The notes below the pieces were generated by a model. It had not been told where the DNA came from. It worked only from the letters and a program-made list of their open reading frames with translations, and ran no database searches. Shown here piece after piece: positions 709 through 33,084 of a DNA stretch of 35,196 nucleotides. The translations under genes and the position numbers were made by a program. The stretch lies in NCBI GenBank assembly GCA_006226565.1, contig SBGO01000065.1, positions 1 through 35,196 of the forward strand, given 5' to 3'. The DNA comes from Deltaproteobacteria bacterium. Lineage in GTDB: Bacteria > Myxococcota_A > UBA9042 > PHBI01. Every line of letters starts with the position of its first letter. The first letter of the stretch is position 1.

Positions 709-1006
709 GAGCGCGTCACGTGGCGGCGAACGCTCTCCCGCTTGCAGGCCCGACCCGAGAGCCCGCCGGCCTCTGAGCTTCGACGGCCGCTGTGGGCGGG
801 ACGAGGCTGTCGCAAAAGCCCACCGACGGCGCCCCCAAAGACCGACCGCGCTCGGGACGAGCGTAGGCCACTTGGCCGGCGGACGTCTCGTCCGCCGTGG
901 ATTCGGTCCACACGACAGCCTCCCGACGCCCGCAATCCCTGGCGCGGCGCTACAAGCCGGGCGGCGGTGGGCGGCGGACGCAGGGGAGGGGGACACCCCA
1001 GAAACG

Positions 1007-1039
1007 ACGACGCCCGCGGCCATCGGCCGCGGGCGTCGT
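1007..1039 (-). terminator. Strong terminator-like hairpin downstream of the giant-protein gene (possibly bidirectional)
   Basis: Perfect 15-bp inverted repeat ACGACGCCCGCGGCC-ATC-GGCCGCGGGCGTCGT, 22 bp after the minus-strand stop codon at 1062. The minus-strand 3' flank is short in T (GTTTC), so termination may be partly factor-dependent. Confidence 0.65.
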
Positions 1040-1061
1040 GGGTGTCAGCCCGAGCGCTGCG

Positions 1062-10589
<9,528 letters not shown>

Positions 10590-26490: not shown

Positions 26491-27021
26491 ATGACCAAGA
26501 AGACCTTCCGAATCCTGAGCGAAGAGACGGTCCGCGTCACCCCGGACGCGGGCGTCGACCCCGATGACGAGAACCCCTACTGGACGGCGTGGGAGGAGCT
26601 GCCGCCGCACCCGGACCCGTCGCAGGGGTGCATCCGGCGCGGGCTCTGCTGCAAGTCGAGCCCCGGTTGGTTCGGGCCGGGCGAGATCGAGGGTGCCGCG
26701 GCGCTGCTCGGCCTCACCCCCGACGATCTCGTGCGGCGCTACCTCGTGATCGACGAGGCGGAGATCGACGGCGAGCGGGTCTACGTCTTCGCGCCGGTGA
26801 AGCTCGCGCGCGACGGCCGGCCGGCGATCCCGCCGGCGACGCGCGCCGACGCCCTGTACCGGACGCTGCGCGGCACCTGCGTCTTCTTCGACGGCGAGGG
26901 GTGCGGGATCTACGCCGCGCGCCCCATCGAGTGCGCCCGCTACGTCTGTACGAACAAGCCGGGCGACAACCTCGATCACGAGGCCATCGCCCGGCTCTGG
27001 AAGGAGGCCGCCGGCGCCTGA
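26491..27021 (+). CDS. YkgJ-like cysteine-cluster protein (putative metal-binding)
   Basis: MTKKTFRILSEETVRVTP...GCIRRGLCCKSSPGWF...GTCVFFDGEGCGIYAARPIECARYVC: spacing of C..CC...C..F...GC.IY..RP..CR.Y matches the YkgJ/UPF0153 cluster. Confidence 0.8.
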   Translation: MTKKTFRILSEETVRVTPDAGVDPDDENPYWTAWEELPPHPDPSQGCIRRGLCCKSSPGWFGPGEIEGAAALLGLTPDDLVRRYLVIDEAEIDGERVYVFAPVKLARDGRPAIPPATRADALYRTLRGTCVFFDGEGCGIYAARPIECARYVCTNKPGDNLDHEAIARLWKEAAGA

Positions 27022-27166
27022 GCGTCGCGGCGACCCGGGTAAGGAGACCGCACCGTGGGGCTGTAGCGGCCGGCCAACTCAGCTCGGCCCACCCAGCGCC
27101 CCGCGCTACGGTCGACACGCCGACGGGCGGCGCCAGCGGCGACCGCCCGGCGACGTGGGAGAGACG

Positions 27167-29188
27167 TTACTCCGTCGCGTGGCGGACGGTGCCGCCGTTC
27201 ATCGGGTCGGCGTCGTAGCCGAGCGCGGTGAAGTCGATGCCGCCGTTGTGGCAGTCGTTGCACTGGCGGGCGGCGGACTTCGGCGCGACCTCGTGGTCGA
27301 GGGCGAGGTACATCTCGGTCGCCACGAAGCCGAAGGTGCCGCTGTAGTCGAGGCCGGCGTAGGCCATGCCCTCGGAGATCGCGGGCGCCCAGTCGAACTT
27401 GGCCCAGTACGGGTTGGCGCCGGCGATGGTCCCGAAGAGGTGCGGCACGGCGAGGACCTTGTTGACCGTATCGGCGGGCTGGTTGCCGACCATGACCTTG
27501 AACGGGTAGATGCGCGCGCTGGCGTCATCGACCGCGCCCAGGGGCGAGCCGAGGTCGACGGGCTCGCTGGTGTAGGCGTCGCCCACGACCATGCGGGTGA
27601 AGGAGCCGTTCCACCAGCGGAGCTCCGGCGTGACGTTCTTGCCCCAGACGAAGTCGCCCTTCAGCTTGTCGTAGTCGGGCTTGCCGTTCGCGTCGGCGAC
27701 CGGGACGCGATCGGCGTCGCCGGCGGTCTCCCAGTACCACTCCATCTTGGTCGGCTGCTGACGGCTGAAGGCCGGGATGTGGCAGGTCTGGCAGGCGACG
27801 TGCTTGGTGTGGTTGTCGAGGGTGGTGCTGTTCTCGTGGATCACCGGGCCCTGGTGGCAGTCGGTGCAGTCGAGCGGCGCCTCGATGATCGGGTCGTGGA
27901 GGCCGCCACCGGCGAGCACGTGGTCCCCGGCCTTGTGGCACTCGACGCAGTCCATGCCGCGGCCCATGTGGACGTCGGCGTCCTCGGTCGGGGCGGTGGC
28001 CCAGGAGCCGAGGTCGCCCTTCTTCACGTTGTCGCCGCCGCCGGCGTAGAAGTGGCAGGAGCCACAGGCCTTGCGGGTCGGGCGGCCGACGCTCTGGGCG
28101 ACGGCGGCGAGCGGGGTCGTCAGCTCGGCGTTACCGGCGGTCTTGGCGGCCTTGGCGTACTTGCCCGTGCCGTCGTGGCAGACGAGGCAGTCGACGTTGG
28201 CGGCGTTGTCGAAGTCGAAGTTCTCGTCCTTCCAGCCGTAGCCCGCGTGGCACTGGGTGCAGCGCGCCTCGTTGGAGATCATGGTGATGCAGAAGTTGTT
28301 GATCAGGTTGGCCTTGCCGATGGTCGCCCCGGTCTCCGCGCCCTGCATGCCGGGCGTCGGGCCCTTGAACTTCCAGTGCGAGGTCGCCATCACGTGGGCG
28401 GCCGCGTTCTGGTGGCAGGTCGTGCACTTCGCCGTCACCTCGGCGCCGTTCGCGAACGGGCCGGCGAGCATCGCGTTGCCGCGGTGCGAGTTGGCGGTCA
28501 GGCAGACGCCCTCGACGCAGACCTCGCCGTCACCGCAGGTCGGGTCGCACTCGAGCTCGACGCACGTCGCCTCGACGCAGGCGTAGCCGCCCGGGCAGAC
28601 CGGATCGCAGACGTTCTCGACGCACTGGCCGGCGCTGCAGAAGAAGCCCTCCTCGCACGCGGGGTCACAGGGGTCCTCTTCGCACTGGCCGGCGTGGCAG
28701 GTGTAGCCGGTGTCGCAGGCGGGGTCGCAGGCGTCCTCGACGCACTGGCCGGCCTGGCAGGTGTAGCCGGTGTCACAGGCGGGGTCGCAGCCATCCTCGA
28801 CGCACTGGCCGGCCTGGCAGGTGTAGCCCGTGTCGCAGGCGGGGTCGCAGCCGTCCTCGACGCACTGGCCGGCCTGGCAGGTGTAGCCCGTGTCGCAGGT
28901 CGGATCGCAGGCGTCCTCGACGCACTGCCCGTCCTGGCAGGTGTATCCGGCGTCGCACGTCGGATCGCAGGTGACCTCGTCCTCCTCGCACTGCCCAGCG
29001 TGGCAGGTGTAGCCTGCGTCGCAGGCCGGGTCGCAGGCGTCCTCGACGCATGCCCCGTCGACGCAGCTGAAGCCTGTCTCGCAGGCCGGATCGCAGGTCT
29101 TGGTGTCCTCGCTGTCGGCGCACCCGGGGGCCAGGCTGACCGTCAGCAGCGCCATCATCCCCAGGGTCGCGAGCTCGTGGCGACGCAT
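27167..29188 (-). CDS. Octaheme c-type cytochrome, tetrathionate-reductase-family-like, with lipoprotein signal and N-terminal Cys-rich repeat stalk
   Basis: MRRHELATLGMMALLTVSLAPGCADS (lipobox-like), ten ~20-aa Cys repeats, then eight CXXCH motifs: CTTCH, CTQCH, CLVCH, CGSCH, CVECH, CTDCH, CQTCH, CNDCH. Segments INNFCITMISNEARCTQCHAGYGWKDENFDFDNAANVDCLVCHDGTGKY and LAAVAQSVGRPTRKACGSCHFYAGGGDNVKKGDLGS resemble the octaheme tetrathionate reductase family. AGGAG lies 7 nt upstream of the ATG. Confidence 0.88.
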   Translation of the reverse strand: MRRHELATLGMMALLTVSLAPGCADSEDTKTCDPACETGFSCVDGACVEDACDPACDAGYTCHAGQCEEDEVTCDPTCDAGYTCQDGQCVEDACDPTCDTGYTCQAGQCVEDGCDPACDTGYTCQAGQCVEDGCDPACDTGYTCQAGQCVEDACDPACDTGYTCHAGQCEEDPCDPACEEGFFCSAGQCVENVCDPVCPGGYACVEATCVELECDPTCGDGEVCVEGVCLTANSHRGNAMLAGPFANGAEVTAKCTTCHQNAAAHVMATSHWKFKGPTPGMQGAETGATIGKANLINNFCITMISNEARCTQCHAGYGWKDENFDFDNAANVDCLVCHDGTGKYAKAAKTAGNAELTTPLAAVAQSVGRPTRKACGSCHFYAGGGDNVKKGDLGSWATAPTEDADVHMGRGMDCVECHKAGDHVLAGGGLHDPIIEAPLDCTDCHQGPVIHENSTTLDNHTKHVACQTCHIPAFSRQQPTKMEWYWETAGDADRVPVADANGKPDYDKLKGDFVWGKNVTPELRWWNGSFTRMVVGDAYTSEPVDLGSPLGAVDDASARIYPFKVMVGNQPADTVNKVLAVPHLFGTIAGANPYWAKFDWAPAISEGMAYAGLDYSGTFGFVATEMYLALDHEVAPKSAARQCNDCHNGGIDFTALGYDADPMNGGTVRHATE
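28496..29095 (-). repeat. Ten tandem ~60-bp coding repeats (CDPxCDxGYTCxxGQCVEDx)
   Basis: Near-identical 60-bp units at 28741-28800, 28801-28860 and 28861-28920 (3-4 differences each by eye), with more diverged copies on both sides. Encodes 4 Cys per unit. Confidence 0.92.
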
Positions 29189-29267
29189 CTCTTGCTCCTC
29201 GTCTCGGGAGGCCGCCGCGATACGTCCCTCTGCCCGCGGCTTGCCTCACGCTCTGGCCCCCGGGGAG

Positions 29268-29283
29268 AGCAAGGAGCGGGCCA
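29268..29283 (-). promoter_or_regulatory. Putative sigma54 (-24/-12) promoter of the octaheme cytochrome gene
   Basis: Minus strand TGGCCCGCTCCTTGCT versus consensus TGGCAC-N5-TTGCW: one mismatch, correct GG-N10-GC spacing. Predicted start site about 29257, roughly 70 nt upstream of the ATG. Confidence 0.7.
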
Positions 29284-29372
29284 GGTCCATGACACGGTGC
29301 GTTGTTTTATTTTTCGACGGGATTTCAGCGTGTTGGTGCGATGTGGCGCTGCGTCGCACCCCGCCGCGTCAC

Positions 29373-29464
29373 GCTTACGTCAGGGGTTGACGTAAGCCCT
29401 TGACGTAAACCCGCGGCGTAAGCCCTTTACGCTGACGCTTGACGTCAACCCTCGGCGTCAACCG
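29373..29464. promoter_or_regulatory. 13-bp-period tandem repeat array, probable activator binding sites (UAS)
   Basis: Successive 13-mers from 29387: TTGACGTAAGCCC, TTGACGTAAACCC, GCGGCGTAAGCCC, TTTACGCTGACGC, TTGACGTCAACCC, TCGGCGTCAACCG. Flanked by the perfect inverted repeat GCTTACGTCA-GGGGT-TGACGTAAGC (29373-29397). Confidence 0.75.
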
Positions 29465-30956
29465 TAGACGCCCCGTCGTCGTCGATCTCGAAGCGACGCA
29501 TCCACTTCCACAGCGTCATCCGGCTGACCCCGAGGCGGCGCGCGGCGGCCGCACGACGCCCGCCCTCGGCCGCGAGGGCGGCCCGGATGAGCGCCGGCGT
29601 CAGGCTCGTGTGGGTCGGCGCGGCGGGCGACGCCGGACGCGCGGGCGGCGCTGGGGAGGTGTCGCACCACGGGGCGGCGCCTTCGTCGGCCGGCTCTCCG
29701 GCAGGCCCGCTGGGCAAGACGCCGCGGACGCAGGAGGGCAGGTCCTTGAGCTCGATCTGGGTGCCGACGCTGACGGCGGCGGCGAACTCGAGGGCGTGCT
29801 CGAGCTCGCGGACGTTGCCCGGCCAGTCGTAGCGCATGAGCGCGTCGAGCGCCTCCGGGGTGACGCCGGTGACGTGGCGCCCGGCGGGGAGGTCGAGGCG
29901 GTCGAGGAGCCCCTCGATCAGCAGCGGCAGGTCGCGCACCCGGTCGCGGAGCGCCGGCAGCAGGATCGGGAACACGGCGAGGCGGTAGTAGAGGTCGGCG
30001 CGGAAGGTGCCCTCGTCGACCATCGCGCGGAGGTCGCGGTGGGTCGCCGTGATGATGCGGATGTCGACGCGGATCGGGCGGTTGTCGCCGACGCGCTCGA
30101 ACTCGTGCTCCTGCAGGACGCGGAGGAGCTTGCGCTGCACGCGCGGTGAGATGTCGCCGATCTCGTCGAGGAAGAGGGTCCCGCCGTCCGCCTCCTCGAA
30201 GCGCCCCTTGCGGGTCGCGATCGCGCCGGTGAAGGCGCCGCGGACGTGGCCGAAGAGCTCGCTCTCGAGCAGGCTCTCGCTGAGCGCCGCGCAGCTCACG
30301 CGGACGAAGGGGCCGCGGCGCCGCTCGCCGGTGTTGTGGATGGCGTGCGCGACGAGCTCCTTGCCGGTCCCGGTCTCGCCCTGGATGAGCACCGCCGCGC
30401 GCGAGCTGCCGGCGACGTCGATGAGGTCGTAGACGCGCTGCATCGCCGGCTGGTGGCCGAGGAGGCGCCCATAGCGGCGCTCGCCCGCCTCGGTCCGGAG
30501 GCGCTGCACCTCGGCCTCGAGGGCGAGGATCTCGGCGACGTCGGTCAGCGCCTCGATCCCCCCCAGCACCTCGCCGTCGGGGCCGTGCATCAGGCGGGCG
30601 TGCTTGACGGTCGGCAGCCGGTGGCCCTCTTTGTGGCGGATGCGGCAGGGCGTGCCGAGGACGTCGCCGCGCTCGAAGAGCGGGCAGCGATCGGGCTTCT
30701 CGGCCAGCGGCCCGCGAAAGCACGTGTCCCCGTCGAGGGTCTGGCACGAGCGGCCGAGCACCTCGTCGGGGGCGTAGCCGGTCAGCTCCTCCATGGCGTG
30801 ATTCCAGGAGGTGATCTTCCCGCTGACGTCGACGGTGAAGACCCCGGTCGGCAGGGCGCTCAGGACGTTGGCGAGCAGCGTCTCGGGCGCGATCTCGCGG
30901 AGGCGCGGCGAGCCGTCGGGGGAGGGGGGCGAGGTGTCGGTGGGCAGCCGGTTCAT
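29445..30956 (-). CDS. PAS domain, sigma54-interacting AAA+ transcriptional activator with Fis-type HTH
   Basis: MNRLPTDTSPP...LSALPTGVFTVDVSGKITSWNHAMEELTGY (PAS); GETGTGKELVAHAIH (Walker A); ELFGHVRGAFTGA (GAFTGA loop); GGTLFLDEIGD (Walker B); YDWPGNVRELEH; C-terminal AAARRLGVSRMTLWKWMRRF (HTH). AGGA upstream of ATG 30956; the frame stays open to 31136. Confidence 0.93.
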   Translation of the reverse strand: MNRLPTDTSPPSPDGSPRLREIAPETLLANVLSALPTGVFTVDVSGKITSWNHAMEELTGYAPDEVLGRSCQTLDGDTCFRGPLAEKPDRCPLFERGDVLGTPCRIRHKEGHRLPTVKHARLMHGPDGEVLGGIEALTDVAEILALEAEVQRLRTEAGERRYGRLLGHQPAMQRVYDLIDVAGSSRAAVLIQGETGTGKELVAHAIHNTGERRRGPFVRVSCAALSESLLESELFGHVRGAFTGAIATRKGRFEEADGGTLFLDEIGDISPRVQRKLLRVLQEHEFERVGDNRPIRVDIRIITATHRDLRAMVDEGTFRADLYYRLAVFPILLPALRDRVRDLPLLIEGLLDRLDLPAGRHVTGVTPEALDALMRYDWPGNVRELEHALEFAAAVSVGTQIELKDLPSCVRGVLPSGPAGEPADEGAAPWCDTSPAPPARPASPAAPTHTSLTPALIRAALAAEGGRRAAAARRLGVSRMTLWKWMRRFEIDDDGASTVDAEG

Positions 30957-31176
30957 GGTCGCTCTTCCTTTCACGAAGCGTGCCGAAGACGCGGCGCAAT
31001 CGGCGTCGCCTCCGACCGCCGGCGGGGGCCGTCGCCTCGGCCGTCCCCCGCGGGCACAGCGCGGTCGGCGCGTGGGCGCCGCCACACAGCCCGCGGCCAG
31101 GTCCCTCGGCGCGCTCGTGTGGGGGATTTCGCACATGCGAAGGCGGCGCCCGTGTGAGCTGCCGCCGCCGCGCGGC

Positions 31177-32256
31177 TCAGAAGACGACGTTGCACTGGAT
31201 CGGGTCGCCCGACAGCGTGTCCTTCGGGTACGCCGCGGCGAAGGTGATGCACATCTCGTCGGTGGAGCTCTTGTTCGGCAGCACGATCCGGTCGGTCGTG
31301 TTGAACCACGTGCAGGTCCATTGCAGGCCGTCGCCTGCGGCGAGGCTCAGCGGCGGCCAGTACTCGACGTAGGCCGGGTGGGCCCAGTCGGTGTCGTAGT
31401 AGACCTCCTCGACCTCGTCGCCGCTGACGGTCTCGATGCTGAACGCCGTGCCGAGCTCGTGGAAGTGGCTCATCAAGCCGAAGATCTCGACGTCGTAGGG
31501 GACCTCGCAGAGCTTGGTCGAGGTCGTCTCGGCGTCCGGCGGCAGGGCGAAGCCCCAGTTGGCGAACCAGATGATGTCGGCGTGGTGCCGGATGTCGGCG
31601 TCCTCGCCCGCGCCGTAGAGGCTCAGGTGGACGCCGCCGCGCATCGGCTCGGTGGTGTAGTTGATGACGTGCTGCTCGAGGATGAGGCGCTGTCCGGGCT
31701 CGAGGTGGAAGGCGACGCCCTCGGGGGTGTCGAAGGTCCGCTCCGGGGTCGCCGAGCCGAAGAGGTAGGCGGCGTCGCCGGAGAGCTGCTCGTCGGCCGG
31801 GGCGCAGTCGTGGACCGTCGCCTCGGCCTCGGTGACCGGCTCGAAGGCCTTGGCGTCGATCACCTTATAGAGGTTGAAGTGGTGCGAGCGGCCCTCCATG
31901 ACGGCGTGGAGGCGGACGAGGTCGAGGGGCGCGTCGCTCGGCAGGTTGAGGGTCTTGCAGACCTGGCGCTCGGTCCCGACCGCGACGTCGAAGGGCTCGA
32001 GCTCGAGGGCCAGGGCCGCTCCGAGCGGGTTGCGCCCGCCGGGCGGGCCGGTGTCGGCGGCCGCGACGTCGCCGTCCACGCCCTCGACGTCGCCGGCGCT
32101 GGCGTCCTCGGCGTCTGGCAAGCCGGTCTCCGCGGCGGTATCGTCGAGCGCCGCGGAGGTGTCGCCGGCCGGGTCGCCGGTCGTCGACGATCCCCCGCAC
32201 GCCGGCGTGGACGCGAGGAGCAGGATGCAGGAGAGCAGGACGGATCGCGGTGCCAT
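31177..32256 (-). CDS. Putative lipoprotein with type II copper, ascorbate-dependent monooxygenase-like (PHM/DBM-like) fold
   Basis: MAPRSVLLSCILLLASTPACGGSS, acidic low-complexity linker, then RSHHFNLYK (HH), LILEQHVINYT (H), LMSHFHELGTAFSIE (HxH) and STDEMCITF (Met): the full CuH/CuM ligand order. Confidence 0.75.
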   Translation of the reverse strand: MAPRSVLLSCILLLASTPACGGSSTTGDPAGDTSAALDDTAAETGLPDAEDASAGDVEGVDGDVAAADTGPPGGRNPLGAALALELEPFDVAVGTERQVCKTLNLPSDAPLDLVRLHAVMEGRSHHFNLYKVIDAKAFEPVTEAEATVHDCAPADEQLSGDAAYLFGSATPERTFDTPEGVAFHLEPGQRLILEQHVINYTTEPMRGGVHLSLYGAGEDADIRHHADIIWFANWGFALPPDAETTSTKLCEVPYDVEIFGLMSHFHELGTAFSIETVSGDEVEEVYYDTDWAHPAYVEYWPPLSLAAGDGLQWTCTWFNTTDRIVLPNKSSTDEMCITFAAAYPKDTLSGDPIQCNVVF

Positions 32257-32370
32257 GCGAGCCTCCGGGCGGGGCCGGCGCGCGGCGCTCCGCGGCTGGT
32301 GCGGGCGGCGCGGGGTGAGCCGGCAGCCTATCCGATCGGCGGCGCGGCGCCAAAGCCCGGGTGGGCGACG

Positions 32371-33084
32371 ATGACCCCGCTTCGTTGGGATCCCGCGAGC
32401 GCGCCCGTGGTCGTCCTCGTCGCGACGGCGACCGTCTGCTACCTGGCGTTCTTCATCCTCGCGGGCCCGGCGGCCGCGCGGCGGCTCTTCCGGCCGGCCG
32501 ACGACGACGCGCTCCGCACCGCCGTCGCCTTCTGGCGGCGCGGCGTCGGCGTGGTCCTGCTCGGCGTCGTCCCGCTCCTCGTCCTCTCCCTCGGGCTCGG
32601 CGGGGACCTCGCCGAGCACGGCCTCACCCTCCGCGATCCCGGGCCGTCGCTCGCCTTCGCCGCGGCGACGCTGGCGCTGATGCTCCCGATCCTCGCGCTC
32701 CAGGCCCGGCGCCCGTGGTTTCACCGCCACTACCCGGAGGCGCGGCTCCGAGCCTGGACCCGCGGCCACGAGGCGGCCAACGCGCTGAGCTGGCTCGCGT
32801 ACCTCGTGGCGTACGAGGCGTTCTTCCGCGGCTTCCTGCTCTTCGGCCTCGCGCACGCGCTCGGCCCCTGGCCGGCCATCGCCATCACCACGGCGGCCTA
32901 CGTCTTCGTCCACCTGACGAAGAACGCCGGCGAGGCCGTCGGCTCGCTCGTCATGGGGCTCGTCTACGGGTTCGTCGCGCTCCACACCGGGTCGATCCTG
33001 ATGCCGCTCGTCGCGCACTGGGTGTCGGCCGTGGCGGCGGACACCTGGGCGCTGTCGCATCACCCGGAGATGACGCGCACGTGA
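32371..33084 (+). CDS. CPBP family intramembrane protease-like membrane protein
   Basis: Multiple hydrophobic segments; motifs YEAFFRGFLLFGLAHALG, AAYVFVHLTKNAGEAVGSLVMGLVYGFVALHTGSILMPLVAHW. Confidence 0.82.
   Translation: MTPLRWDPASAPVVVLVATATVCYLAFFILAGPAAARRLFRPADDDALRTAVAFWRRGVGVVLLGVVPLLVLSLGLGGDLAEHGLTLRDPGPSLAFAAATLALMLPILALQARRPWFHRHYPEARLRAWTRGHEAANALSWLAYLVAYEAFFRGFLLFGLAHALGPWPAIAITTAAYVFVHLTKNAGEAVGSLVMGLVYGFVALHTGSILMPLVAHWVSAVAADTWALSHHPEMTRT

What the first reader, a model, noticed from the sequence alone, without database searches (positions are those of the whole stretch)
29188..29300. Near-consensus sigma54 promoter driving the octaheme cytochrome: a self-contained activator-UAS-promoter-reductase circuit
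TGGCCCGCTCCTTGCT (minus strand, 29283-29268) matches TGGCAC-N5-TTGCW with one mismatch and exact GG-N10-GC spacing. The predicted start (~29257) puts the 13-bp array at about -116 to -207, the classic enhancer distance for sigma54 activators, and the activator gene (GAFTGA-containing) is immediately upstream. Everything needed for regulated expression sits in ~2 kb.
Basis: partly seen in the sequence, partly recalled or inferred. Interest (0 to 1): 0.7.

Follow-up and report, generated by a model that had tools for sequence, protein, structure and literature searches.

The report
Sigma54 switch for an octaheme cytochrome
A gene for a multi-heme enzyme (an octaheme cytochrome) is very probably switched on by a dedicated neighbouring activator that binds a row of seven or eight short DNA repeats and fires a sigma54 promoter; the same arrangement recurs in distant relatives, so the circuit looks real but is of a known general kind.

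Summary
TGGCCCGCTCCTTGCT (minus strand, 29283-29268) is the only match within one mismatch in the window. The genome carries one rpoN and 40 copies of TGGCMCG-N4-TTGCW, against 1 for the reversed pattern. The predicted start (29257) gives a 69-nt leader. The 13-bp array (29374-29477) lies at -117 to -207 and is the only place in the 7.7-Mb genome with three exact CGTMA boxes at 13-bp pitch.

Relatives decide the matter. Of 379 genomes, 11 hold this Cys-bearing PAS activator; in 8 (window included) it shares a contig with an octaheme cytochrome gene. The window's OTR gene and seven of its eight closest relatives have a sigma54-type element upstream. Repeats lie mostly between about -92 and -204, and their sequence follows the activator's recognition helix: SRM with CGTMAR, SRV with GTTAAC, HRV/HRI with GCAACM. 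This ties activator to array to promoter.

The signal, rpoN dependence and the enzyme's substrate remain untested. A published prediction in Desulfovibrio (DVU3142 and the ohc octaheme operon) has the same logic, so this is a new, well-anchored member of a known kind.

The parts
29268..29283 (-). sigma54-type promoter TGGCCCG-CTCC-TTGCT (-24/-12 element)
   Evidence: only match within one mismatch in the window; top weight-matrix site; same pattern 40 against 1 in the genome
29257..29257 (-). predicted transcription start (+1)
   Evidence: 12 nt downstream of the -12 C; not mapped
29189..29257 (-). predicted 69-nt leader with a GAGGAGC ribosome-binding-site-like stretch before ATG
   Evidence: sequence
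29374..29477 (.). array of seven 13-bp units (consensus TTGACGTMARCCC on the + strand) plus a degenerate eighth; predicted activator-binding enhancer
29445..30956 (-). activator gene: Cys-bearing PAS, AAA+ sigma54-interaction domain with GAFTGA, Fis-type HTH
   Evidence: start chosen by comparison with orthologs and an AGGAAG stretch upstream
27167..29188 (-). tetrathionate reductase family octaheme cytochrome c with lipoprotein-like leader and Cys-rich repeat region
   Evidence: TIGR04315 494 bits, cut-off 375; 1SP3 E 3e-116; eight CxxCH

Best explanation
The locus is a local sigma54 switch. The activator encoded just upstream (PAS, AAA+, Fis-type HTH) binds the array of short repeats 117-207 bp upstream of the start. 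Occupied by several subunits, the array serves as a scaffold on which the AAA+ ring assembles; the DNA between loops so that the ring touches sigma54-RNA polymerase waiting at TGGCCCGCTCCTTGCT, and ATP hydrolysis opens the promoter of the octaheme cytochrome gene. The PAS domain holds the trigger, probably through four cysteines (C71, C78, C91, C104), so the signal is most likely a redox or reactive sulfur or nitrogen cue. Supported by sequence: promoter, array, activator, cytochrome, and the pairing of helix with repeat. Inferred from what is established for bacterial enhancer-binding proteins: looping, ring assembly, open-complex formation. Conjecture: the signal.
For: Promoter; rpoN. Array: exact 13-bp pitch, unique in the genome in this form, at -117 to -207. 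Conserved architecture: sigma54-type elements upstream of seven of the eight OTR genes closest to the window's, whereas most other OTR genes have none above shuffle level. Activator orthologs in 11 of 379 genomes, eight of them (window included) on one contig with an octaheme cytochrome gene: six with OTR, two with a different 8-CxxCH lipoprotein. Repeat sequence follows the recognition helix in ten loci: SRM with CGTMAR, SRV with GTTAAC, HRV/HRI with GCAACM, all in the enhancer range. Two host families each contain two of the classes, so host kinship does not explain the pairing.
Against: Nothing was measured. The three motif classes were defined on the same loci in which they are counted, and a tree of the activators needs as few as three class changes, so the pairing rests on few independent events. 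L036 and L037 have only one exact GTTAAC each. L041 has no promoter; L034 has a promoter but no neighbouring activator; G186 has the activator without a cytochrome nearby. The -22 position is C where the consensus has A.
Confidence: 0.85

Rival explanations
1. The promoter is sigma54-dependent, but the array binds another protein (a repressor or a second regulator), and the neighbouring activator mainly works elsewhere or from the inverted repeat 29335-29360.
For: Palindromic, densely packed repeats at a non-helical 13-bp pitch are not the textbook pair of enhancer sites. An inverted repeat GGTGCGA-N12-TCGCACC lies between array and promoter.
Against: The repeat sequence tracks the activator's recognition helix across ten loci and the repeats sit at enhancer distance. 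The triple 13-bp form occurs nowhere else in the genome.
Confidence: 0.1
2. The -24/-12 match is a chance resemblance in G+C-rich DNA, and the gene is transcribed from a promoter of another type.
For: One mismatch; the weight matrix is approximate; a whole shuffled window holds such a match in 32 of 100 shuffles.
Against: Position in the gap between activator and target, orientation, the strong excess of the pattern in this genome (40 against 1), related promoters upstream of seven related OTR genes, and no sigma70-like site by the simple scan.
Confidence: 0.04
3. The array is a neutral tandem repeat that grew at the end of the activator gene and has no regulatory role.
For: Exact 13-bp pitch; the distal units overlap the coding end of the activator.
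Against: Arrays of different sequence and pitch stand at the same distance in relatives, including divergent gene pairs (L039, L040) where no activator 3' end is involved. A 13-bp pitch recurs with a different sequence in L037 (read by eye).
Confidence: 0.03

Closest known systems
DVU3142 and the ohcBAC octaheme cytochrome operon of Desulfovibrionales (PMC4641369; prediction)
   Same: A sigma54 activator gene beside an octaheme cytochrome operon, with a conserved sigma54 promoter and activator-binding sites upstream.
   Different: Divergent orientation; target is a three-gene membrane-linked complex, here a single gene. Whether OhcA belongs to TIGR04315 and whether DVU3142 is an ortholog of this activator was not tested.
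NorR and the norVW promoter (PMC2941729)
   Same: One-component bEBP with several enhancer sites that serve as a scaffold for ring assembly next to its target genes.
   Different: GAF domain with non-haem iron instead of a Cys-bearing PAS; three sites rather than seven or eight packed at 13 bp. The window protein is below the NorR equivalog cut-off (334 against 476 bits).
FisR, sulfide/persulfide-responsive sigma54 activator (PMC7315123)
   Same: One-component sigma54 activator; regulatory-domain cysteines contribute to sensing in the Cupriavidus protein.
   Different: Controls sulfide-oxidation genes, not an octaheme cytochrome. No sequence comparison with FisR was made.
Octaheme tetrathionate reductase of Shewanella oneidensis (PDB 1SP3)
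   Same: The cytochrome core aligns along the whole domain and keeps eight CxxCH motifs.
   Different: The window protein has an added N-terminal Cys-rich repeat region and a lipoprotein-like leader. I found no paper on transcriptional control of the Shewanella gene.

Membership tests
sigma54-dependent promoter | GG-N10-GC with TGGCAC-N5-TTGCW consensus | tested here: met
   one mismatch, exact spacing
sigma54-dependent promoter | sigma54 encoded in the genome | tested here: met
   one Sigma54_DBD gene, E 4e-64
sigma54-dependent promoter | start about 12 nt downstream of the -12 element and rpoN dependence | not testable with these tools
   needs RNA and mutants
bacterial enhancer-binding protein (bEBP) | AAA+ sigma54-interaction domain with GAFTGA | tested here: met
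   PF00158 E 2e-70; GAFTGA in the translation
bacterial enhancer-binding protein (bEBP) | C-terminal Fis-type HTH | tested here: met
   PF02954 E 5e-9
bacterial enhancer-binding protein (bEBP) | enhancer sites upstream of the target promoter | tested here: met
   array at -117 to -207; motif tracks the HTH in ten loci; binding itself not shown
tetrathionate reductase family octaheme cytochrome (TIGR04315) | profile score above cut-off and eight CxxCH | tested here: met
   494 bits against 375; eight CxxCH
tetrathionate reductase family octaheme cytochrome (TIGR04315) | reduction of tetrathionate, nitrite or hydroxylamine | not testable with these tools
   needs protein
NifA | equivalog cut-off of TIGR01817 | tested here: not met
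   372 against 529 bits
NorR | equivalog cut-off of NF003451 | tested here: not met
   334 against 476 bits
FisR-type sulfane-sulfur sensor | regulatory-domain cysteines that respond to sulfane sulfur | not tested
   PAS cysteines C71 and C91 are invariant in 12 orthologs, but no alignment with FisR was made
DVU3142/ohc-type regulator | orthology to DVU3142 | not tested
   DVU3142 was not in the sequences at hand

The most novel reading that the evidence does not exclude
An undescribed clade of Cys-PAS sigma54 activators is dedicated to octaheme cytochrome lipoproteins. It reads dense arrays of short half-sites, up to eight at a non-helical 13-bp pitch, whose sequence changes together with a short stretch of the recognition helix. 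Four PAS cysteines mark the OTR-linked members and would report the substrate class of an enzyme whose physiological role is unsettled.
Probability: 0.45. Interest if true: 0.65.

Novelty: new member of a known kind. Interest (0 to 1): 0.48.

Why it matters
The Shewanella OTR reduces nitrite, hydroxylamine and tetrathionate (PMC4484225), and which of these matters in the cell is unsettled. A dedicated activator, whose signal could be found by a simple reporter screen, would give an indirect answer. The locus and its relatives also form a natural series for studying how the recognition helix of a ring-forming activator and its enhancer array change together, and how many closely packed sites such an activator uses.

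Tried and rejected
A weight matrix made from the window array alone found extra sites in L035 (4 against about 0.5) and L038 (2) but none in L037, L039 or L040 and about chance level in L034 and L036; a single common motif was therefore dropped for helix-specific classes. An uninformed repeat test against dinucleotide shuffles had little power in these G+C-rich regions. Class-level searches for more activators found no new genomes, so the pairing has no out-of-sample test. The idea that the cut lipoprotein gene at the edge of G200:C12 is the OTR gene on G200:C460 was rejected: that OTR has a different, membrane-anchor-like N-terminus. A PDB search with the PAS domain gave only generic PAS matches. 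The AlphaFold model of the activator (mean pLDDT 77) gave no coordinates to work with and its cysteine loop has low confidence, so it was not used to argue for a metal site. Errors of form that led nowhere.

Full report
CHECK OF THE OBSERVATION. The site TGGCCCGCTCCTTGCT is at 29283-29268 on the minus strand, with one mismatch to TGGCAC-N5-TTGCW and GG-N10-GC spacing. It is the only such match on either strand of the window; shuffled windows hold 0.39 on average. With an approximate sigma54 weight matrix of my own it is the best site in the window, 15.4 against 12.4 for the next. The 13-bp array is real: seven units in register plus a degenerate eighth, with autocorrelation peaks at lags 13, 26 and 39. 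The activator's stop codon falls inside the array, so its distal units overlap the end of that gene.

DOES THE GENOME USE SUCH PROMOTERS? The window's genome (7.7 Mb, 780 contigs) has one rpoN. The pattern TGGCMCG-N4-TTGCW occurs 40 times, against 1 for the reversed pattern; 5 of the 40 are the TGGCCC form seen here. Where I read the downstream sequence, many sites are followed after about 40-60 bp by a ribosome-binding-site-like stretch and ATG. No sigma70-like site was found by the simple scan in 26900-32400.

THE GENES. The target gene (27167-29188) belongs to the tetrathionate reductase octaheme family: TIGR04315, 494 bits with cut-off 375; Shewanella structure 1SP3, E 3e-116; eight CxxCH. 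It has an extra N-terminal region of eight 60-bp Cys-rich repeats. The upstream gene, best read from ATG at 30956 by comparison with orthologs, encodes PAS, AAA+ with GAFTGA, and a Fis-type HTH. It is below the cut-offs of all the named equivalogs shown, NifA and NorR included.

RELATIVES. Searches for the OTR family in 379 genomes of the phylum and in named genomes gave many OTR genes. The ones closest to the window's (L034-L041, about 48-60% identity over the core) stand out: seven of these eight have a sigma54-type element upstream - TGGTCCGCGCATTGCT, TGGCACGCCCATTGCT, TGGTGCGCTTATTGCT, TGGCCTGCCCGTTGCA, TGGAACGCCCCTTGCC, CGGCACGCCCGATGCA, CGGCACGCCCGGTGCA; L041 has none. Most other OTR loci scanned have nothing above shuffle level; a few have a strong site, among them L104, L016, L028 and L045. 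In L104 a different activator precedes a small ArsR-like gene and then OTR.

The PAS part of the activator gives a match in 11 of 379 genomes. It is directly upstream of OTR in the window, L035 and L036, divergent from OTR in L039 and L040, and about 6 kb from OTR on the same contig in G247 (L102/L037). In L038 (G265) the C-terminal end of an activator with the SRV helix lies tail to tail with OTR. In L100 and L101 the ortholog is directly upstream of a different lipoprotein with eight CxxCH, again with a sigma54-type site. G200 (L099) has activator, repeats, promoter and the start of a lipoprotein gene at a contig edge. Exceptions: L034 has a promoter but no neighbouring activator; G186 (L097) has the activator but no cytochrome nearby; G248's contig ends inside the activator.

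ARRAY AND ACTIVATOR BELONG TOGETHER. Counting three short motifs in the stretch between activator gene and promoter gives a nearly diagonal table. Recognition helix GVSRMTLWKWM: CGTMAR 12 times in the window and 4 in L099. GVSRVTLWKWM: GTTAAC 4, 1, 1 and 2 times in L035, L036, L037 and L038. GVHRV/GIHRI: GCAACM 5, 6 and 5 times in L040, L100 and L101; L039, whose activator is cut before the helix, also has 5. The only off-diagonal count among these ten is one CGTMAR in L038, at chance level. The motifs sit at about -92 to -204 from the predicted start in all ten loci, apart from one extra box at -32 in L100. In L037 the related boxes CGTTAACC/CGTTCACC also stand 13 bp apart (read by eye). Host family does not explain the pairing: families f5 and f30 each contain both the GTTAAC and the GCAACM type. 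Two cautions: the motif classes were defined on these same sequences, so the shuffle frequencies are optimistic, and a tree of the activators without their HTH needs as few as three class changes, the HRV/HRI class probably being one clade.

UNIQUENESS. Three exact CGTMA boxes at 13-bp pitch occur nowhere else in the genome. The activator therefore probably has one main target, though single or differently spaced sites elsewhere are not excluded.

SENSOR. Of the PAS cysteines, C71 and C91 are invariant in the 12 aligned orthologs. C78 and C104 are present in the OTR-linked members of the alignment but absent in L100 and L101, which adjoin the other octaheme (read). This suggests a thiol-based or metal-based sensor whose cysteines vary with the target; it is a hypothesis.

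COMPARISON WITH THE KNOWN. A dedicated bEBP next to its sigma54-dependent target is a known kind of circuit. The nearest published case I found is DVU3142, predicted to control the ohc octaheme complex in Desulfovibrionales (PMC4641369). Several enhancer sites as a scaffold for ring assembly are documented for NorR (PMC2941729). I found no paper on sigma54 control of OTR genes, within a library of open-licence papers only.

VERDICT. It is a new, well-anchored member of a known kind; the dense 13-bp array is its odd feature.

Noticed in passing
PAS domain of the activator (29445-30956, minus strand); loci L100, L101: OTR-linked activators carry C71, C78, C91 and C104; the two orthologs beside a different 8-CxxCH lipoprotein lack C78 and C104.
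   Followed up: partly
28605-29097: Eight 60-bp repeats encode a Cys-rich region (CDPACDTGYTCQAGQCVED) between the lipoprotein-like leader and the cytochrome core; relatives L037-L040 have other Cys-rich repeats in the same place, L035 and L036 Pro/Asp-rich ones.
   Followed up: no
29335-29360: Inverted repeat GGTGCGA-N12-TCGCACC between array and promoter; possible site for another regulator.
   Followed up: no
29304-29320: A/T-rich tract in G+C-rich DNA between array and promoter, possibly a bend that helps looping.
   Followed up: no
1062-25069 (minus strand): Two giant abutting open frames (4787 and 3215 aa) with DUF11, GEVED, NHL, LTD, TSP3, DUF4215 and beta-helix matches, like large surface proteins.
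   Followed up: partly
31177-32256 (minus strand): Gene upstream of the activator: lipoprotein-like protein with a copper type II monooxygenase C-terminal domain match.
   Followed up: no
L042 (G000:C194, about 830-3000): A second OTR gene in the same genome lies in a 1016-aa open frame with a further multiheme stretch; no strong sigma54 site upstream.
   Followed up: partly
L034 (G122:C284), upstream of OTR: OTR with a sigma54-type site but no neighbouring activator; dyads CTTGAC-N4-GTCAAG upstream.
   Followed up: partly
L104 (G191:C1), L016 (G065:C153): In another OTR group TGGCACG-N4-CTGCT lies upstream; in L104 it precedes an ArsR-like gene and OTR and follows a different activator with helix GIHKATLLRKM, so sigma54 control of OTR may have arisen more than once.
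   Followed up: partly
L034:10081-12942 (+): A bacterial major-vault-protein-like gene (MVP shoulder and vault repeats) next to the OTR locus of G122.
   Followed up: no
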